Shown piece after piece: positions 14,111 to 49,074 of a stretch of 64,000 nucleotides of DNA; the first letter of the stretch is position 1; every line of letters starts with the position of its first letter. The DNA lies in contig CP136067.1 of NCBI GenBank assembly GCA_032622095.1, forward strand, positions 134,667,990 to 134,731,989. The letters are read 5' to 3'. The stretch is from Siphonodentalium dalli (taxonomy: Eukaryota > Mollusca > Scaphopoda > Gadilida > Siphonodentaliidae). The translations under genes were made by a program, and so were the position numbers. The notes beneath the pieces were generated by a model. The model saw only the letters and a list, made by a program, of their open reading frames with translations. It did not search any database and was not told the DNA's origin.

Positions 14111-15139
14111 AGCGCTGACTGAGACACTCCACAACGGGGCTGACAACGGAAATATAGACCCCCCAATTTGTCTCTTTGTTTTTGTGTCTATATATATATG
14201 TCCGTTAGTGCAACGAAGTTCAACGAACAAAGCAATCATTTTGTATTGTCTGGTTTTGGTGTCATATATAAGATAATGCACATCTGGCACATGATCTTTA
14301 ATGCTGCACCAGCGCATATCTCGTCATGAAAGGGTTGATATACCATACGAGTCTTCAGTTTTATCTGTATTTTGTTAACAAACTACCTATTTGTAGTCTT
14401 AATATTGGATTTTATAAAAAAAAAAATGGTGCAGTAATTGTGAGCCGGAAGAGAAAAGCCGTCTTTAAATAGAGACGACGAATCAATCTCACGCGTGTTA
14501 TCAATTATCGCACTGCATTACACCATAAACTAACGCATTTTAAAGATACCGAATTATCCGAATTAACGCTCGCAAATTACTATCTCCTTGGCTTCGGGGG
14601 TAAAAAATATTTGATTCAAGGCCAACAAAGCTCAGAGTGATCACATATCGATGTTTGACATCTATTATTTTTCACCACCCACAATTTTAAGTGGCCCAGT
14701 AAACATTCGATGAGAAGACCTCCTCTGACCAAATTGCGGATGAATATGAATAACTCTAAAATCAAGTGGCTTTTTTGTGTCAGATATTTGACAAAGCGGC
14801 AAAATTTCGTTGAATAAACGTTGACAAATAACAGGTTTTGGGGCAATTTTATACTATAGTTGAATGTGGTTAGCATTATTTTTGGGCAATTACTCGATTC
14901 TGATAACTGAAGCGGCATTTCAAAAAATATTTGTTGTTGGAATCTGATGATATGTGGACCATCGAATCGGATTGAGTATCTTTAATGTGGTGGTGGGAGC
15001 AGCTATAGAAAAGTGATTTCTATCTTCTCAACAAATGGCTTAATTTCATCAACAGTGAACGATATCTGCCTGCATTATTATTTTAACCCAATGACATGAT
15101 TTGTGACCCAATAGCAAAACCAAAATGAACTGATGTTAA
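14111..15139. other. Mixed unannotated sequence with dispersed-repeat pieces
   Basis: 14284-14337 (CATGATCTTTAATGCTGCAC...CATGAAAGGG) is repeated in inverted form at 28618-28673. 14575-14690 matches 2505-2610. No coding region is supported. Confidence 0.45.
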
Positions 15140-17594
15140 TGCGATGTGAAACCCTCTGTATGCTGTGGATATTTGTTTGGGAATAGAGAATACTCTTGCT
15201 CAAAGTGTTATACGTATTTTCATAAGTTGTATATTCAAATAGCATCACAAAACATGATTATTCCATTCATGGAATATAAGCAGTGATTCACCATGTCAAT
15301 TGTCATTTTGATAAGCGCGATTAATCCGTTCCATCAATAATGAAGTATTTATTTACAACTGCGTATACTTCAGACGTTATAATATGATACATGAACAACA
15401 TAAACACATTAGTTTGCAAAAAATAAAAGACGGCAATTGAGTTTTACATATTGATGTGTATCAATCAATCTAGTGGGTTGGACCAAGATCTTGAGGACAC
15501 CTGGCTATCATATCTCCATGAAGATACAGATGTTTCAAAGAAATTTCCAGGTGCTCATCTGTTCATGGTGCTACATATTGGCTAAATATTCTCAGTTCAA
15601 ACGAAATGTTGCTGCGCAAGTATATCAGCTACACGTGCCAGGCACAGAGCGAGATGTTGAGTTGTTGATGTCAGGCGATGAGTCTGTTCTAAAACCCTTT
15701 TCAGATGTCAGTATTGGAGGATCCTGAAAAGTCATGTGCTACTAACTGCGTTTTCTTTTATATTAGAAGAAGCTATATTTGACTGCACACTGTGACCAAC
15801 ATTTTTGAACAGGCCTTCCATATCTCTTGACATATTGTAACTTTGTTGTGGAAACTGTATTGAATAAAACAGACTCAATTGTGTTATAATATATATGCAA
15901 TCCTCTGACGGTTCGAGGTCTCTCAGTTTGCACGAATATATGTATCTCTTAAATAGAATGTTAAATATACGTTTAATGCTTCTTCTATGTATCTCTTTTT
16001 GATAGCTCATTGTGTGAATACCCTGATTGCCGTCCCCAAATAAATATGACAGTTGAGAAGATATAATTGTTCAAGTGACTTAAGTGGGTCATCATTTGTC
16101 GAGATTGTGAAATGTGAACGCCCAAAACTCCTTAAAATGATATCGAGATGGACGGATGACTGTATATAACTTATAGGTGGATATCTGAGAATAGCAATCT
16201 TATCAATGGTAGTGCATGTCCTCTCACTATTCGTGACCCAAACGACAACAAATGTGATTTAATTCGTATATCATTCCACTTTTGACATATTTAAACCACG
16301 CCCATTAGACTCGTGGATGCATCATTCACTGGAGATGATTATATATATATATACAAATTCGTATCAAATTTAAGGTCCCCATATCTCTCACCCATAGGGC
16401 ACCAATGTGGTGTATCTAAACCACACGATAAGATTCCTCGTATCACTGAGAAGAATATGTAGCAATCTGGTGGAAATCGGCGCTAAACATATTGTTATAA
16501 TTTTGTGTGTCCCTCTCACCTCTATACACCACTAACTCGAATGGCCCAACTTGTGACATTCTTAAACCACACAATTACACTACGGATATCATGAAGATGA
16601 TTGTTTATAAGTTTGGTGATAATCGGCGACTAAACAATTTTTGTTATCAAATTTGGTGCCCACCCCCTCTCCATCTCTCACCCAAACAGCACCACTATGG
16701 CGTCTTTAAATCACACGATTAGATTCCTCGTATCACGGATAAGAACGTGTATCAATTTTGGTGGAAATTGGCGCAAAAAATTGTGCATCAATTTTTGGTA
16801 CACTTCTCCCTTTCAATGCACCCCTGACTCGAATGAGGCCACATTTGACAGATTTAAGCCGCACCATTAGACTCCTCATACCATTGGGATGATTTTGTAT
16901 AAGTGTGGTGGCAATCGGCGACTAAACCAATTATTATCAAATTTAGTGCCCCCCCCAATATCTCATCCAAGCGACAATAAGTTGGGGTTGTTAAATCGCA
17001 CAATTAGATTCCTTGTATCATGAAGAAGAATGTATATCAATATGGTGGAAATCGGCGCTAAAATCAGTTTTATCAATTTTGGTGCCTCTCTCCCCTTCCG
17101 TTCATCCCTGACTCAAATGACACCACTTTTGACATATTTAAACCACACCGTTAGATTATTCATAACATGGGGATGATTATATGTAGGTTTCGTGGCAATC
17201 TGCGACAAAAAAATTCTGCCCCTCCCCCTTTTCTGCCCCTGGTCACTTTAGAAAATTCTAACCCCGACCATTATCTTTCTCGTAAAACGTTACCCCTAGT
17301 AGATCCCTTTGGTATCATCTAGATGCTAAAATTAGTTTTATCAAATTTGGTGCCCCTCTCCCCTTCTGTGCATCGCTGACTCGAACGACGCCATTTTCGA
17401 CATATTTAAACCACACTGTTAGATTCTTCATATCATGGGGATGATTATTTGTAAGTTTCGTGGCAATCGGCGACAAAAACAACGGCGTCACTTTAGAAAA
17501 TTCTAACCCCGACCATTATCTTTCTCGTAAAAAGTTATCCGTATTAGACCCCTTTGGTATCATCTAGATGGTCCCCTGTGAATTTCTATAGAAC

Positions 17595-29494: not shown

Positions 29495-30176
29495 CTAGAA
29501 GGTGACCCGACTTCGTCCGGGCTTGGACCTTGAATTGACCATTTTGAAGGTCACGGTCAGGTGGGTTAACGATTTGACCCGTCCAAAACACTGCCCGGAC
29601 AAAAGTACCCGACAAAAGTACCCGTCGAAATCCATCCGGTTTTACCCGATTTGACCTTGAATTGATCATTTTGAAGGTCAAGGTCAGGTCGGGGTCACGA
29701 CTCGACCCGTCCAAAACACTCAGTGGACAAAAGTAACCCCACGAATCAAATTTCGTCGACATCCCATCAAAATATGAGACTCCCGATACGAAAGTACCCC
29801 CACATACCAACTTTCATCGAAACCCCGTGATATTCGGGCGTTTGACCTTGAAATGACCCGATTTCAAGGTCAAGGTCACGTCGCACGGGGAAATTAATAG
29901 GTGTATGCCACTCCCCGGCCAAATGCACCACCACATACCAAGTTTCATCGAAATCCCGTGATATTCGGGCGTTTGACCTTGACATTACCCGATTTCAAAG
30001 TCAAGGTCACGTCGCACGGGCAAATTAATATGCCTATGCCACTTCCTGGCCGAAAATACCACCACATACCAAGTTTCATCGAAATCGGATCGGCCGTTTT
30101 CGAGTTCATCGCGAACACACACACAGAGACACAGACACACAGACAGACAGACAGATCTTCCAAAATATATAATAGA
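29495..30176 (-). mobile_element. Helitron-like element, family A, copy 1
   Basis: Read on the - strand it starts TCTATTATATATTTTGGAAG, passes a (GTCT)n/(GTGT)n tract and ends with CCCGGACGAAGTCGGG, seven bases, then CTAG followed by T. The TC start, a GC-rich hairpin just before CTAG and an A/T insertion point are Helitron marks; insertion was into a TATATA tract. The body contains several 120-bp units with CAAGTTTCATCGAAATCCCG and TTTGACCTTGAAATGACCCG. Frames of 110-155 residues across the copies follow the period and are not genes. Confidence 0.65.
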
Positions 30177-30200
30177 TATATATATATATATATATATATA

Positions 30201-30795
30201 CTAGAAGGTGACCCGACTTCGTCCGGGCTTTGACCTTGAATTGTCCATTTTGAAGGTCAAGGTCAAGTGGGGTAACGATTTGACCAGTCCAAAACACTGC
30301 CCGGAAAAAAGTACCCGACAAACGTGCCCGTCGAAATCCATCCGGTTTTACTCGATTTGACCTCGAATTGATCAGTTTGAAGGTCAAGGTGAGGTCGGGG
30401 TCACGATATGACCCGTCCAAAACACACAGTGGACAACAGTCACCCCATGTATCAAATTTCGTCGAAATCCCATAAAAATTGGCGATTTGACCTTGAATTG
30501 ACCCGATTTCAAGGTCACGTCGCACGGGCAAATGAATAAGCTTATGAGACTCCACATACGAAGGTACCCCCACAAACCAAGTTTCATCGAAATCCCGTGA
30601 TATTCGGGCGTTTGACCTTGAAATGACCCGATTTCAAAGTCAAGGTGACGTCGCACGGAGAAATTAATATGCCTATGTTCGTCCCCGGCCGAAAATACCC
30701 CCACATACCAAGTTTCATCGAAATCGGGTCGGCCGTTTTCGAGTTCATCGCGAACACACAGACAGACACACATATCTTCCAAAATATATAATAGA
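30201..30795 (-). mobile_element. Helitron-like element, family A, copy 2
   Basis: Same ends as copy 1: the + strand begins CTAGAAGGTGACCCGACTTC at 30201 and finishes at CTTCCAAAATATATAATAGA. It is 595 bp and shorter by loss of internal units. It is separated from copy 1 by a TA tract. Confidence 0.65.
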
Positions 30796-30803
30796 TATAT
30801 ATA

Positions 30804-31580
30804 CTAGAAGGTGATCCGACTTAGTCCGGGCTTTGACCTTGAATTGTCCATTTTGAAGGTCAAGGTCAAGTGGGGTCACGATTTGACCAGTCCAAAACAC
30901 TGCCCGGACAAAAGATCCCGACAAACGTGCCCGTCGAAATCCATCCGGTTTTACCCGATTTTACCTTGAATTGATCAATTTGAAGGTCAAGGTCAGGTCG
31001 GGGTCACGACTCGACCAGTCCAAAACACTCAGTGGATAAAAATAACCCCACGTATCAAATTTCGTCCAAATCCCATCAAAATTGGCGATTTGACCTTGAA
31101 TTGACCCGATTTCAAGGTCAATGTCACGTCGCACGGGCAATTTAATAGGTTTATGCCACTCCCCGGTCGAAGGTACCCCCCACATACCAAGTTTCATCGA
31201 AATCCCGTGATATTCGGGCGTTTGACATTGAAATGCCCCGATTTCAAGGTCAAGGTCACGTCGCACGGGCAAATTAATAGGCCTATGTCACTCCCCTGTC
31301 GAAAATACCCCCACATACCAAGTTTCATCGAAATCCCGTGATATTCGGGCGTTTGACCTTGAAATTACCAGATTTCAAGGTCAAGGTCACGTCGCACGGG
31401 CAAATTAATAGGCCTATGTCACTCCCCGGCCGAAAATTCCCCCACATACCAAGTTTTATCGAAATCGGCTCGGCCGTTTTCGAGTTCATCGATTACATAC
31501 ACACACACACCCTAACACACACTCACACACCCTCCCTCACACACACACACACCCGCACACACACACACACACCCACAGTC
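30804..31580 (-). mobile_element. Helitron-like element, family A, copy 3 (5' end lost)
   Basis: Begins CTAGAAGGTGATCCGACTTA at 30804. It has an extra 120-bp unit relative to copy 2 and ends in a long CACA tract (31500-31580) without the TCTATTATAT start, so the 5' end has been lost or replaced by the microsatellite. Confidence 0.6.
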
Positions 31581-33699: not shown

Positions 33700-35236
33700 C
33701 AACTGGACTTTTCGTTTTCTACCTATAATTTGAGCTCTCGCGAACCCGTTTGAACGCTGTTTACAATCGGGCTCGCGGGACAAACGGGCTCGAGCCCGAT
33801 TAGAAGCATTAAAGTCTGGAATGTAAGCCCCATTGTAGGCGATTGTTAACTCACACACACACACACATACTTGTAATGTGTTACAAATGGGGTATTTTGC
33901 ATTAAACCAGCCAATCGGTATCTGGCCTTTCTAATGTACCAGGGTGAACGAAATTAATTGTAACAGGAACATATGACGGGGGCATCACACTGAACAAGAA
34001 ATAAACGTTATATCACCTTTAAATGGATTTGAGGTTTTTATCCTCACAAGTGGGTTCATTTCAAAACACATGTGTGTGACAAATGGTAACAGCCATGTGT
34101 GACAACCGAGGACAGGATACACAATACAAAAAGTGTGCGAAATGGGCACATCTTCGGCATTGAGAATGTATTAATTTTAACATCCGACAAAATGTGACAA
34201 ATGGGCACATCGTATGCATTGATAGAAATGTGTTAATTATACACACCGGACAAAGTGTGATCAATGGGCACATCCATGATACTGAGTTCCAATTGTTCCG
34301 GATTGCAACTGTGTTTTTTTTCATTCCTAGCTGATTTTCATTATATAATAAAAGCTCTATATGTGAAGGTTTTAACTTCCGAATCGCGACGCACCGATTT
34401 CGTGGTATCAAAATGATATGATGCAGGTTCAAATCTGATGAGAAATTGGTTAAACACGGAATTTTATTTTAAATATTCGATATGTATTTTCATCGTGTTC
34501 GAGTCAGCAGAGGCTTATATACACGCATAAATTATTTTTGAATATGAATGGTAACTTAATATCAATCACCAGCCGGAGGTTTCATTTATTCCGGACATAT
34601 ATACCACAGCAATTTTTCAAATGCTTTTGTATTTGCACGGAAGAGAAAATTTATTTTTACCAATTATAGGAATAGACTAACAATAAACGCTCTTTATTGT
34701 TCCAACGTGACTCGGAAATCAGAAACCAAAATACATGCATATCATACTTACGTCGATCTGATATCAGGACTTGTTTTGTTCTTCCATCTTCAGTGTTCCG
34801 AGAAATTTTACTCCAAAAATGGTAACCGGCTTGATGCAGCGTTTCCAAATTGGCGAACGTGGAGCCATGATTTACAGTGCGCATGCGCAACCCCGCGCAC
34901 CCCGGTTGTCACACACCTACGCTACGCGTGCGCACTTGTAATCCTAGTGTTGATTTTTAACAACATGAACGGGCTCACGAAAACATCAAACACACACCAG
35001 CTGTCCCAAATCTCACACAAAAACAAAAAAAATTTCTAAACGGGCTCATCTTCGGGATTTCAATTCTAAAGGTATTTTAGACCCATGGGAAGCAGCTGGA
35101 GGGCGATTCAGAAACGGGTTCGAGCCAATTTGGCCAATGTGCCCGGTTAGAAGGTATAAAGCTGGTGTATGAGCCCGATCGGTAGGTCATTACGAACTCA
35201 CAAACACACACAAACACACAGATCTTCCAAAATATA
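33700..35236 (-). mobile_element. Broken Helitron-like relative with internal insertion
   Basis: 33700-33870 and 35040-35236 both contain ACGGGCTCGAGCC / ACGGGTTCGAGCC, then TAGAAG...TAAAG, GTAATGAGCCC-like words and a CACA tract. The right edge ends CACAGATCTTCCAAAATATA, the same edge as family A. The material between (about 33880-35030) looks unrelated and includes the 62-bp tandem repeat. No CTAG end was found on the left. Confidence 0.45.
34060..34290. repeat. Tandem repeat of about 62 bp
   Basis: Three to four units with GTGTGACAAATGGGCACATC, CATTGAGA and TGTATTAATTxxACA. The units are diverged. Confidence 0.6.
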
Positions 35237-35242
35237 TATGAA

Positions 35243-35611
35243 CTAGCCGATGAGCCCGACGTTGTCCGGGCTATTCAAAAACCAAATTTCAAGTCGATAG
35301 CTCCACCCGTTTCCGAGATCTGGTCTGCGCATGCACGAAGCTGGCGTCGCACGGGCTCGGCGACCCGATAAAATTCGTATCCGGGGCAAGATACATTCAC
35401 ATAGCAAATTTCAAGTCGATAGCTCCACCCGTTTCCGATATCTCGTCTGCGCATGTGCGAAGCGGACGCCGCACGGGCTCGCCAATACGACAACGTCGAC
35501 CGCCTGGTCAAACTACAAACACGTATCAAGTTTCGTCCCGATCGGTCGAGAATCGTAGATTTGTATAAATGACATACAGACAAACAAACAGACAAACAGA
35601 GGTCTTCAAAA
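35243..35611 (-). mobile_element. Helitron-like element, family B, copy 1 (5' end lost)
   Basis: The + strand begins CTAGCCGATGAGCCCGACGT at 35243. The - strand therefore ends AGCCCG-GACAACGT-CGGGCT, six bases, CTAG, a six-base-pair hairpin. Internal 117-bp units carry CAAATTTCAAGTCGATAGCT. It is cut at about 35611 just inside the CAGACAAACAGAGGTCTTCA tract, where an opposite-strand copy begins. Confidence 0.65.
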
Positions 35612-36064
35612 TCCACAGACGATATCTCGGAAACGGGTGGAGCTATCGACTTGAAATTTGCTATGTGAATGTACCTTGCCCGGATACGAATTTTATCGGG
35701 TCGCCGAGCCCGTGCGACACCAGCTTCGCGCATGCGCAGACGAGATCTCGGAAACGGGTGGAGTTATCGACTTGAAATTTGGTATGTGATTGTATCTTGC
35801 CCCGGATACGAATTGTATCGGGTCGCAGAGCCCGTGCGACGCCATCTTCGCGCATGCGCAGACGAGATCTCGGAAATGGGTGGAGCTATCGACTTGAAAT
35901 TTGGTATGTGAATGTATCTTGTCCCGGATACGAATTTTATCGGGTCGCCGAGCCCGTGCGACTCCAGCTTCGCGCATGCGCAGACGAGATCTCGGAAACG
36001 GGTGGAGCTATCGACTTGAAATTTGTTTTTGAATAGCCCGGACAACGTCGGGCTCATCGGCTAG
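35612..36064 (+). mobile_element. Helitron-like element, family B, copy 2 (5' end lost)
   Basis: Opposite in orientation to copy 1 and facing it. It contains four 117-bp units (AGATCTCGGAAACGGGTGGA, TATCGACTTGAAATTTG) and ends with the hairpin and CATCGGCTAG at 36064. The first base after CTAG is the T that opens the next copy. Confidence 0.65.
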
Positions 36065-36601
36065 TCTCATATATATTTTGAAGACCTCTGTCTGTCTGTC
36101 TGTTTGTCTGTTTGTCTGTCATTTATACAAATCTACGATTCTCGACCGATCGGGATGAAACTTGGTACGTGTCTCTAGTTTGACCAGGCGGTCGACGTTG
36201 TCGTATTGGCGAGCCCGTGCGGCGTCCGCTTCGTGCATGCGCAGACGAGATCTCGGAAACGGGTGGAGCTATCGACTTGAAATTTGCTATGTGAATGTAT
36301 CTTGCCCCGATTACGAAGTTTATCGGGTCGCCGAGCCCGTGCGACGCCAGCTTCGCGCATGCGCAGACGAGATCTCGGAAACGGGTGGTGCTATCGACTT
36401 GAAATTTGGTATGTGAATGTATCTTGCCCCGGATACGAATTTTATCGGGTCGCCGAGCCCGTGCGACGCCAGCTTCGCGCATGCGCTGACCAGATCTCGG
36501 AAACGGGTAGAGCTATCGACTTGAAATTTCCGGCTGGGTAGAGCTATCGACTTGAAATTTGGTTTTTGAATAGCCCGGACAACGTCGGGCTCATCGGCTA
36601 G
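36065..36601 (+). mobile_element. Helitron-like element, family B, copy 3 (both ends)
   Basis: Complete by termini: TCTCATATATATTTTGAAGA at the start, then a CTGTCTGTCTG tract, three to four 117-bp units, AGCCCGGACAACGTCGGGCT, CATCGG, CTAG. It directly abuts copies 2 and 4 with no spacer. Confidence 0.75.
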
Positions 36602-36989
36602 TCTCATATATATTTTGAAGACCTCTGTTTGTCTATCTGTATGTTTGTCTGTTTGTCTGTCATTTATACAAATCTACGATTCTCGACCGATCGGGACGAA
36701 ACTTGGTACGTGTGTGTAGTTTGACCAGGCGGTCGATGTTGTCGTATTGGCGAGCCCGTGCGGCGCCCGCTTCGGGCATGCGCAGACGATATCTCGGAAA
36801 CGGGTGGAGCTATCGACTTGAAATTTGCTATGTGAATGTATCTTGCCCCGGATACGAATTTTTTCGGGTCGCCGAGCCCGTGCGACGCCAGCTTCGCGCA
36901 TGCGCAGACCAGATATCGGAAACGGGTGGAGCTATCGACTTGAAATTTGGTTTTTGAATAGCCCGGACAACGTCGGGCTCATCGGCTAG
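36602..36989 (+). mobile_element. Helitron-like element, family B, copy 4 (both ends)
   Basis: Same termini as copy 3, with fewer internal units (388 bp). Its CTAG at 36986-36989 is followed directly by the TC start of a family A element. Confidence 0.75.
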
Positions 36990-37619
36990 TCTATTATATA
37001 TTTTGGAAGATATGTGTGTGAGTGTCTGTCTGTCTGTGTGTTCGCGGTGGACTCGAAAACGCCGAACCGATTTCGATGAAACTTGGTGTGTGGGGGTACT
37101 TTCGGCCGTGGAGTGGCATGGGCCTGTTAATTTGCCCGTGCGACGTGACCTTGACCTTGAAATCGGGTCATTTCAAGGTCGAACGCCCGAGTATCACGGG
37201 ATTTCGATGACAATTAGTGTCTGGGGATACTTTCGTATGGGGAGTGTCGAAAGCCTATTCATTTGCCCGTACGACGCGACCTTGACCTTGAAATCGGGTC
37301 AATTCAAGCTCAAATCGCGAATTTAGATGGGATTTCGACGAAATTTGATACGTGGGGTTACTTTTGTCCACTGAGTGTTTTGGACGGGTAGAGTCGTGAC
37401 CCCGACCTGACCTTGACCTTCAAAATGATCAATTCGAGGTCAAATCGGGTAAAACCGGATGGATTTCGACGGGTACTTTTGTCGGGTAGTGTTTTGGACG
37501 AGTCAAATCGTGACCCCCACCTGTTCTTGACCTTCAAAATGGACAATTCAAGGTCAAATCGCGCAATTCGCCGAAAAGCAGACGGGAAACAGCCCGGACG
37601 AATTCGGGTCCACCTGCTA

Positions 37620-37620
<1 letters not shown>
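36990..37620 (+). mobile_element. Helitron-like element, family A, copy 4 (both ends)
   Basis: Starts TCTATTATATATTTTGGAAG right after the CTAG of copy 4 of family B. It ends CCCGGACGAATTCGGG, TCCACCTG, CTAG, then a TATATA tract. It is the reverse orientation of the family A cluster at 29495-31580. Confidence 0.75.
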
Positions 37621-45720: not shown

Positions 45721-47371
45721 TTCGGATCTTTTTTCTTATTCGTAGCCAACGCCACAAAAGTCACATCTTAAGCGGACGTGGGCTCACCAACATTTTTTAT
45801 TTCATAACTTGTATACGTAAATGGGCCACAGTCATCCTTATACATGGGATGTTATTAGTGGGGCGGATAGATGAAAATTTGTGCATGTTCTGGTAAAAGT
45901 GCAACATTTGGCACACATCTGAAACACATGAATAGTAACTTTGGATATCATGCCAAGCTGGAAATTTGTCATGGTTGACATGGCAACCATTTTAGTGAAA
46001 ACGGTTGTTTTCCTCCCATTCTAAGCCATTGTAAAGTACGGTTGACCAGTAACTGCGAGAAACACTGCTATGTTGGTCGGACATGTATCAGACTGTATAC
46101 CCGTTGACAACATTATCTTATATATGATGGGTAAATTCAAAATAGCGGATTAAATGGCAGCCATTTGAGCGAAATTGCAGTTCTTAAATACTATAAGTTA
46201 TGTATTGCCTGTATCCCAATTGTGGTGGAATGCGTGTACATTTCTTTTATTTCAAACATGAAAATTGCATAGACAAAACACCAATCAATGACTCCCGGCT
46301 ATGGGTCATGTGTCAAGAAAAAACCTGTTTCCATGTCAACGATATCATATATGCACATACTAATCAGCTAATATTTTGTTCCAATGACCATTAATTAGGC
46401 AACACAACAAGCATCTTCGTGATACAAAATTATTTCAGTATTGATTCTTAAACTTTACCCATTCATTGCATATATATATATACTACTAGTTATTGAAGGA
46501 TTGAGAAACTATGCTCGCATTTTATTTAGTGTACTCCTTGACAACCGTTTGTATAGAACTGATTACTCTCCTTTAACCGTTAAAGAGTGTTCAATGTAAA
46601 TTTCTATAGGGACAGTCTGATACTCGAAAATATAGATATAGATTATTATATCTTAATTAGTTTTCGACATATTACTATCATGATCGGAGGAATATTTAAA
46701 AATATATGAATATTAGAATTGAACTTAATCTTGGCATTTAAGTGCCCATGTATATGACATTGAAGCCAGTTACCGAATAACAGCGGTGCTGTAGCTCACC
46801 AGCTAAAAGCCTTCCGACGTACATCAGAAGAGCGCACGTACAAATGTACTAGAGAACAAACCCGCTCTAATGTTCCTTCCTAGCGACCTGCGCATATGTG
46901 TTTTGTCTGTATACATCGTGTTGCATACAGCTAGGTCAAAATGTAACTGACACTATAATGAAACGACCATGCACGTAGAAAAGGTGACACCACCAGTGAC
47001 CCGAGAAATATATGATAACCTCACTTTGATCATTATTTTAAATGAAATCCAGATCTCACAAATAAACTAACGCCGGTATTCCATCTATTGATGTCTTGAT
47101 GTCTTCTAGCAGTATACATTGTTCACCAACAATGACTTTATATTTACGAAGATGCGCTCGAGCATATAATCTGAAATTTCGTAATGAACTGCATATCGTA
47201 GTTATGTGACATGCAGCTGCACCTATTTATTATGACGCAATTATACAAATGTTAAGCTTTCATAACAGTTTAGGTTGACAGTCAGGAATGCGGGTGCGCA
47301 TGTTGATCGGTACACAATAATATGAATCTTATGTGAGCCCCTCTCCCTGGAAACAGCTACTATAGTGAATA
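45721..47371. other. Unannotated centre of the inverted duplication
   Basis: 46610-46650 (TTTCTATAGGGACAGTCTGA then AATATAGATATAGAT) resembles the 5' edge of Helitron-like family C. A tRNA-like word TAGCTCACCAGC near 46793 has no B box. No gene supported. Confidence 0.4.
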
Positions 47372-49074
47372 CTAGCAGGGTTACCCGGCGTTGCCCAGAA
47401 TAAAGTGATGTGAAACCCTCTGTGGATATTTGGTGGGAATAGAGAATACTCTTGCTCTCAAAGTGTTACACGTATTCTCATAAATTGTATATCCAAATGG
47501 CATCGCAAAACACGATTCTTACACATGGAATATAAGTAGTGGCTCACCTTGTCAGGCCGGAGCGATTATTATTTTGTTTATCGCGTTTAATCCGTCCCAT
47601 CAATAAAGAAGTATTTATTTATTTTACAACTACGTATACTTCAGACGTTATAGCATGAATCATGAACATCATAAACACATTAGTTCGAAAAATTAAAAGA
47701 CGACAATTGTGTTTTACATAGAGATGTATCAATCTGATTCAATCAATCAATCTAGTTTATCATATCTTCATGAAGATACGGATGTTTTAAAGATATGTCC
47801 AGGTGCTCCTCTGTTCTGGCTAATCATTTTCAGTTTAAAAGAATTGATGTTATGCGGGTATAGCAACTACATGTGTCCGACACAGCGAGATGTTTAGTTG
47901 TTTATGTTAGGCGATAAGTCTGTTCTAAAAATGAAAGAAATCTTCTGTATTGGGCAGACATACCCTTGTCAGATGTCAATATTGGAGGATCCTGAAAAGT
48001 CATGTGCTACGGACTGCGTTTTCCTTTATCTCAGAAGTAACCATATTTGACTGCACACTGTGACCACTATTTTTGAACAGGCCTGCTCTACATTTCCATA
48101 TATCTTGGTAATTGTAACTTTTTTGTGTGGAAACTATATTGAATGCGACAGACTCAATCGTGTTATATTATATACATGATCCATTCTAATATGCAATCAT
48201 CTGACGATTCAAGGTCCCTCAGTTTGAATGAATATATGTATCTCTTAAATAGATTGATATAAATATACTTTTAATGCTTTCTTCTATGTATCTGTGTTGC
48301 TAGATCATTATAGGAATGCCCTGATTTCCATCCCCATATAAATATGACAGTTGAGAAGCTATAATTGTTCAAGTGACTTAATTCGGTCACCATTTGATTG
48401 TGAAATTGGAATGCCAAAAACTCCTTAGAACGATATGGAGATGGCCTGGGAGATGACTATATATAACTTTGTTGGATATCGGCGAATTGAACAATCTTAT
48501 AAATGCTGGTGAATCTCCTCTAGCCATCCATGACCCAAACTACCCCAAATGTGATTTAATTCATCATATCATTAGCGAAGAACGTGTATGAATTTGGTGG
48601 AATCAGTACTAAATATATGTGTATCAACTTTAGTGCAACTCCCCTCATGCATGACTTGAACCGCGCCACTTTTGTCACATTTAAACCACGTCTATTAGAC
48701 TCATGCATGCATCATATAATGGAGATGATTATATATAAGTGTGGTGGTAATCGGCAACTAAACAGATTCTTATCATAGTTATTACCCCCCCCCCCCCCCC
48801 CCCACCATCTCCCACCCAAACGGCACCAATTTCGCGTCTTTAAATAACACATTTATATTCCATGTATCACAGAGAAGAATAATATATCAATTTGGTTGAA
48901 ATCTGTGCTAAGATTAGCCCCTCCCCTGACACCAACAACATCACTTTATAAAATTTTAACCCGCACCATTATCTTACTCGTAAAAAGTTACCCCTGTTAG
49001 ACCGCCTTGGTGCCATCTCGATTGTACCCTTAAAGTTATATATAGAACACAGACAGATATTCGCAAATATTTGA
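47372..49074 (-). mobile_element. Helitron-like repeat, family C (copy 2)
   Basis: The + strand begins CTAGCAGGGTTACCCGGCGT at 47372, so the - strand ends GGGCAACGCCGGGTAACCC then TG CTAG and T. The other edge reads, on the - strand, TCAAATATTTGCGAATATCT then GTCTGTG. The body matches 15140-17645 in the same order. A C run of about 20 lies at 48784-48803. The hairpin before CTAG is imperfect, probably through mutation. Confidence 0.55.

What the first reader, a model, noticed from the sequence alone, without database searches (positions are those of the whole stretch)
35243..37620. Gapless head-to-tail chain of two Helitron-like families
Seen: three consecutive junctions read CTAG|TCTCATATATATTTTG, CTAG|TCTCATATATATTTTG and CTAG|TCTATTATATATTTTG, with no bases between. 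Two B-family copies and one A-family copy are complete by termini. Each has a TC start, a GTCT-rich tract, internal 117-120 bp units, a GC hairpin six to eight bases before the end, and CTAG. Known: Helitrons end this way, insert between A and T, and tandem arrays can arise when rolling-circle transfer reads past an end or re-targets it. Inferred: this chain arose by repeated insertion at, or read-through of, the same terminus, and a second family used the same junction.
Basis: partly seen in the sequence, partly recalled or inferred. Interest (0 to 1): 0.75.

Follow-up and report, generated by a model that had tools for sequence, protein, structure and literature searches.

The report
Helitron chains built at their heads
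In this large genome more than twenty thousand small rolling-circle transposons sit directly behind another one with no base between, most likely because the front end of each copy looks like the kind of DNA site at which these transposons insert.

Summary
The elements behave as canonical Helitrons (TC start, hairpin, CTAG end, A|T site, no target duplication at the one site that could be tested). A RepHel gene with family B's own ends was found at two loci (open frame of 1614 codons at one, a stop inside at the other). Chaining is genome-wide: of 49,095 exact heads, 22,876 (46.6%) follow CTAG directly, 20,946 follow an A. Sampled neighbours are mostly independent insertions, not read-through copies: 19 of 20 complete adjacent B pairs differ in length, 2 of 22 pairs are under 1% apart, and mixed junctions are polar (3,038 B->A, 485 A->B). 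Most likely mechanism: host targets read A|T followed by a W-rich stretch with TATA around +6, and the heads (A|TCTNNTATATATTTTG) have the same layout, so new copies dock at resident heads. Insertion behind a tail would break the A|T rule. Unequal exchange enlarges some arrays. Age order within chains was tested and gave no signal. Tandem Helitrons are known, and 5'-end self-insertion has been suggested in print; the scale, polarity and head-target likeness are added here.

The parts
36065..36601 (+). complete B copy 1 (537 bp), TC to CTAG, joined gaplessly on both sides
36602..36989 (+). complete B copy 2 (388 bp), joined gaplessly on both sides
36990..37620 (+). complete A copy (631 bp), last of the chain, followed by T and a TA repeat
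36061..36080 (+). gapless junction B tail | B head
36598..36617 (+). gapless junction B tail | B head
36986..37005 (+). gapless junction B tail | A head
35613..36064 (+). 5'-truncated B copy with intact tail, start of the + strand chain (left limit approximate)
35243..35612 (-). B copy on the - strand with intact tail and broken head, facing the truncated + strand copy (right limit approximate)
   Evidence: inverted repeats I1, I2, I15-I17
35217..35246 (-). fourth gapless junction, B tail | TT-starting head, on the - strand
36571..36592 (+). 3' hairpin of B copy 1, stem ends six bases before CTAG
36959..36980 (+). 3' hairpin of B copy 2, stem ends six bases before CTAG
36210..36529 (+). internal 122-bp tandem units of B copy 1
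37069..37364 (+). internal 131-bp tandem units of the A copy

Best explanation
These are canonical Helitrons and short derivatives of them, moved by RepHel proteins that insert between A and T where a W-rich stretch with TATA follows at about +5 to +12. Each element's own left end (TCTNNTATATATTTTG behind a host A) has the same layout. Once a copy sits in the genome its head is therefore a ready target: the next copy goes in exactly between the host A and the resident T, which gives a gapless tail-head junction and leaves A|T free again at the new head. Chains so grow at the 5' end and the upstream copy is the later one. Shown: the ends, the A|T rule, empty sites for one B copy, RepHel with B ends, the scale, the polarity, the target layout. 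Inferred: growth at the head, and that RepHel reads target and left end alike. Unequal exchange then enlarges some chains into arrays.
For: Scale and A|T rule: 49,095 exact heads, 22,876 behind CTAG, 20,946 behind A. In a third head family, 100 listed heads with A or G before them are 54 A, 45 CTAG, 1 CTTG, so G was met there only as a Helitron tail or its one-base variant. Target layout: behind 77 distinct B tails positions +5 to +12 are 88-100% A/T, TATA starts at +6 in 43 of 77 and lies within +4 to +10 in 66 of 77, against 11 of 82 for the mirrored place on the 5' side. With a matrix from these targets, 122, 48 and 21 of 13,250 A|T sites of the window score at least as high as the B, A and A' heads. 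Independent insertion: lengths differ in 19 of 20 adjacent pairs, 2 of 22 pairs under 1%; mixed junctions 3,038 B->A and 485 A->B, 0.91 and 0.16 separate loci per Mb. Mobiliser.
Against: Upstream copies are not measurably younger: in 22 adjacent B pairs upstream is less diverged in 10, more in 11, equal in 1; in A pairs 2 and 5. B is not clearly younger than A (mean pairwise divergence 9.9% for B; 13.6, 9.7 and 11.3% for three A clusters). Part of the head score is plain AT-richness: the reversed B head is reached by 4.6% of A|T sites, and the CC, TT and third-family heads by 5.6, 8.6 and 5.9%, although the third family is joined in 45 of 100. 5,273 of 49,095 heads follow neither A nor CTAG and were not looked into. 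Only one insertion site gave empty copies, a second did not. Adjacent B copies are slightly closer than random ones (p 0.03).
Confidence: 0.62

Rival explanations
1. Read-through or multimeric circles: rolling-circle copying passes the 3' terminator, or a multimer of a circle integrates, and lays down several copies in one event.
For: Known proposal for bat and silkworm arrays (passages of PMC4067079); Helraiser makes circles with exact tail-head joints (passages of PMC4778049). Here 4 of 22 adjacent B pairs are under 2.5% apart against 19 of 871 others, and one pair is 982/982 bp.
Against: 19 of 20 complete adjacent B pairs differ in length by more than 5 bases, 18 of 22 are 2.5% or more apart; 3,038 B->A junctions join different families; no near-identical B->A composite was seen at two separate loci in the sample.
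Confidence: 0.15
2. Growth at the tail: new copies are inserted directly behind CTAG of a resident copy.
For: Gives the same final sequence as growth at the head.
Against: It breaks G|T rather than A|T. Heads not behind CTAG are preceded by A in 20,946 of 26,219, and in the third family no G was listed other than CTAG (45) and CTTG (1) among 100.
Confidence: 0.07
3. Unequal exchange and segmental duplication multiply rare neighbouring insertions into chains.
For: A 2,405-bp repeated unit in L033, a 626-bp repeated unit with shared CTA|TC joints in L034 and its paralogue L044, regular arrays at C1:188.850-188.869 Mb and C1:16.0516-16.0544 Mb.
Against: It cannot make a first gapless junction, and in the first 100 heads of C1 20 of 72 runs hold two to four copies, with neighbours mostly unlike in length.
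Confidence: 0.1

Closest known systems
Helibat / Helraiser, canonical Helitron of bats (PMC4778049 and PMC5876387, passages seen)
   Same: TC and CTAG ends, 3' hairpin, A|T insertion without duplication, RepHel protein; AT-rich target preference strongest beside the 3' end of the insert; AT-rich left end near the cleavage site
   Different: Here a large share of copies is chained, families are ordered in the chains, and the W-rich target stretch matches the element's own head in place; the passages seen do not link these
Tandem Helitrons of bat, silkworm, maize and Drosophila (PMC4067079, PMC5148889, passages seen)
   Different: There ascribed to a bypassed terminator; here neighbours are mostly unlike and the order of families is polar
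Non-canonical Helitrons of fungi (PMC5148889, passages and one section seen)
   Same: Insertion of one Helitron at the 5' end of another is offered as one of two explanations for a triple tandem in Metarhizium
   Different: Helitron2-like ends and other target sites; one case, not tens of thousands
Cg_HINE elements of the Pacific oyster (PMC7492417, abstract and two sections seen)
   Same: Short non-autonomous elements with microsatellite, internal tandem units and 3' palindrome
   Different: Helentron type with TT or T-rich sites; gapless chains not described in the parts read

Membership tests
Canonical Helitron (Helitron1) | 5' TC and 3' CTRR (CTAG) ends | tested here: met
   for families A and B; one - strand head starts TT
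Canonical Helitron (Helitron1) | palindrome/hairpin shortly before the 3' end | tested here: met
   both B copies z -2.0, six bases before CTAG; the A copy only by sequence, fold no better than shuffles
Canonical Helitron (Helitron1) | insertion between A and T without target duplication | tested here: met
   A before 20,946 of 26,219 heads not behind CTAG; empty copies for one site: 33 rows cross the joint, 16 of exact length, 17 shorter by 1-6 bases, none longer; a second site gave none
Canonical Helitron (Helitron1) | RepHel protein in an element with the same ends | tested here: met
   family B: L049, frame 1614 codons with Helitron_like_N and PIF1, and the C4 copy with the same termini but a stop in its domain. 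Family A: not found in the few loci read
Canonical Helitron (Helitron1) | rolling-circle transposition through a circle | not testable with these tools
   needs an experiment
Helentron / HINE | insertion at TT / T-rich sites | tested here: not met
   A|T sites
Helentron / HINE | endonuclease domain in the autonomous protein | tested here: not met
   no endonuclease family in the Pfam scan of the B RepHel of L049; the frames of 2,500-2,860 codons were not scanned
Helentron / HINE | sub-terminal inverted repeats | not tested
   no search at that length was made

The most novel reading that the evidence does not exclude
The left end of these Helitrons doubles as their preferred target: RepHel reads target and its own nick site by the same rule (A|T, then TATA at about +6), so every insertion seeds a new target. 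Dispersed transposons thereby turn into oriented chains whose family order records the order of activity, and into seeds of satellite arrays.
Probability: 0.5. Interest if true: 0.72.

Novelty: new variant of a known kind. Interest (0 to 1): 0.55.

Why it matters
Tandem Helitrons have been read as products of replication past the terminator. Here is a genome with over twenty thousand junctions in which repeated, oriented insertion at the resident head fits most of what was sampled, with a sequence reason for it. If right, it says how a Helitron chooses its target, makes chain order a relative clock of transposon families, and gives a route from transposon to satellite DNA. It can be tested with published active Helitron systems.

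Tried and rejected
Read-through as the main cause: disfavoured on lengths, distances and mixed families. Growth at the tail: disfavoured by the A|T rule. Age order inside chains: tested, no signal. B younger than A: weak at best. Empty site of the L042 chain: other copies of the host repeat match essentially the 5' side only. RepHel with A ends: not found among the loci read (L049, L050, L051 and the C4 copy, of 151 matches).

Selections before counts; 100 printed 3' flanks, 82 unique, 77 after removing pure TA and near-identical ones; all from the first 73 Mb of C1, all with a base other than C at +2 and A or T at +21 by the search pattern, and one of the 77 is itself the remnant of a head; in retyping the 100 flanks I left out repeated strings, 84 were used after removing the pure TA one, 82 after merging near-identical ones; 36 of the 40 rows were typed (left out: the query's own two halves and those of a filled paralogue), and the 33 with at least 15 bases of 5' flank were counted; copies came from a hand-made list's chains (44 B, 34 A; 43 and 33 measurable), leaving out among others L032, L034, L041, L045, L047, L049, copies without a head, and the third unit of L033. 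The chains were chosen from listed junctions, not at random. Searches used coordinates or strings retyped. The fuzzy table holds a few false ends (for example in L029, L045, L060 and at the - strand junction of the window).

Full report
What was claimed and what is there. All three are exact, at 36061, 36598 and 36986, and so are the complete copies between and behind them: B 36065-36601, B 36602-36989, A 36990-37620. The number expected in the window by chance is 0.01 with two mismatches allowed. Two details need correction. The internal units are 122 bp (B) and 131 bp (A). The stretch from 35243 to 36064 is a broken B copy on the - strand facing a 5'-truncated B copy on the + strand. A fourth gapless junction lies on the - strand at 35243 and joins a B tail to a head that starts TT.

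Scale. The window lies in a genome of 2.23 Gb in nine contigs. Exact heads TCTNNTATATATTTTG number 49,095 (reversed control 168). Of these 22,876 stand directly behind CTAG (reversed control 1), 20,946 behind an A (reversed control 46), and 5,273 behind something else, which I did not look into. Exact patterns miss mutated copies, so the counts are lower bounds. In the first 100 heads of contig C1, a contiguous sample, 38 are joined; they fall into 72 runs, 52 of one head, 14 of two, 4 of three and 2 of four. The 46.6% of the whole genome is thus raised in part by local arrays.

What the elements are. In the fetched loci, A and B heads that are not behind a Helitron tail have an A before them, and intact outer tails are followed by T (one search also lists a few false fuzzy ends). 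For the solo B copy in L041, the joined flanks are found uninterrupted at many paralogous places: 33 listed rows cross the joint with at least 15 bases of 5' flank, 16 of them at exactly the query length, 17 shorter by 1 to 6 bases, none longer. So there is no target duplication there. A second site, L042, gave no clear empty copy.

The mobiliser. The genome holds at least 151 matches to the Helitron Rep domain, several in frames of about 1,600 codons, others of 2,500 to 2,860. One, at C1:13743912 (L049, frame of 1614 codons), lies between a B head and a B-like tail 8.7 kb apart. A second copy on C4 is 98.9% alike over 3.5 kb but has a stop inside its domain. Its ends, fetched separately, are CATCTA|TCTCATATATATTTTG and CATCGGCTAG|TATG; its likeness to L049 stops at the tail and within seven bases of the head. 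About the first 310 bases of the L049 element align with the short B copies, internal units included. The L049 protein has Helitron_like_N, PIF1 and a Rep match just under its cut-off, and no endonuclease family. So short B is best read as a derivative of a canonical Helitron. L050 and L051 hold related RepHel proteins with other tails; the tail of L051 is itself joined gaplessly to a head, TCTATATATATAAAACC. I did not find the 5' end of L051's own element, so I cannot say that it mobilises that head family.

How chains arise. If a chain were laid down in one event, neighbours would be alike. Over 167 aligned columns, 22 adjacent B pairs differ by 5.3% on average against 6.5% for 871 pairs from different loci; the difference is small but not nil (p 0.03). 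Under 1% are 2 of 22 adjacent pairs and none of 871 others; under 2.5% are 4 of 22 and 19 of 871; 19 of 20 complete adjacent pairs differ in length by more than 5 bases. Mixed chains are common and polar: 3,038 B->A junctions, 485 A->B. Many of the latter lie in local arrays; listed hits merged within 50 kb give 0.91 B->A and 0.16 A->B loci per Mb. In the C1 sample no run has A before B. Independent insertion at one place therefore dominates in the sample, with some tandem copying or unequal exchange on top (L033, L034).

Which place. Head and tail insertion give the same final sequence, but the first breaks A|T and the second G|T. Host insertions follow A|T. In the third head family, 100 listed heads with A or G before them are 54 A, 45 CTAG and 1 CTTG. 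The host side then gives a reason. Behind 77 distinct B tails the flank is 88 to 100% A/T at each of +5 to +12 and has TATA starting at +6 in 43 of 77, within +4 to +10 in 66 of 77. The mirrored place on the 5' side has TATA in 11 of 82. The heads carry TATATAT from +6. Scored with a matrix from host targets, B, A and A' heads are reached by 122, 48 and 21 of 13,250 A|T sites in the window, and by 36, 31 and 22% of the host targets themselves. A resident head is thus about as good as the better third of real targets. Part of this is plain AT-richness: the reversed B head is reached by 4.6% of sites, the CC, third-family and TT heads by 5.6, 5.9 and 8.6%.

What did not come out. The model predicts younger copies upstream. 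In B pairs upstream is less diverged in 10 and more in 11; in A pairs 2 and 5. B is not clearly younger than A. The direction of growth is inferred from the A|T rule and the target layout, not shown by age.

Against the literature. [quoted passage not shown] Helraiser inserts at A|T with an AT-rich preference strongest beside the insert's 3' end, has an AT-rich stretch near the left cleavage site, and forms circles (PMC4778049; PMC5876387). In fungi one triple tandem might be insertion into another Helitron's 5' end (PMC5148889). Passages of a 2026 wheat paper give an AT preference (PMC13286980). A maize study that, as I recall, found Helitrons inserting near other Helitrons was not seen. In the listings (one search found nothing) I noticed no paper that ties chains to the likeness of left end and target, but six papers were opened, each in part.

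Verdict. The elements are canonical Helitrons; chaining is a known phenomenon, here at large scale, with evidence for oriented insertion at resident heads and a sequence reason for it.

Noticed in passing
window 29495-30804 (- strand): Two A copies and one A tail in a row on the - strand, but with TA-rich spacers of 8 and 24 bases instead of gapless joints.
   Followed up: no
L034, L044: Paralogous chains of three and two B copies whose joints read CTA|TC, the last G of the tail missing, shared by both.
   Followed up: partly
G000:C1:13.75-13.79 Mb: 18 listed B->A junctions within 35 kb on one strand, a few kb from the RepHel-bearing B element of L049.
   Followed up: no
G000:C1:188850288-188868830: 17 A->B junctions spaced 1,055 to 1,197 bases: a higher-order array built from a Helitron pair, like a young satellite.
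   Followed up: no
window 47369-47641 and 15135-15370: Stretches 95% and 80% like the 3' end of the RepHel element in L050, the first with its CTAG tail: derivatives of another Helitron family.
   Followed up: no
G000, for example C8:82475387 and C8:164614114: A second group of Rep-domain matches in open frames of about 2,500 to 2,860 codons, possibly another Helitron class.
   Followed up: no
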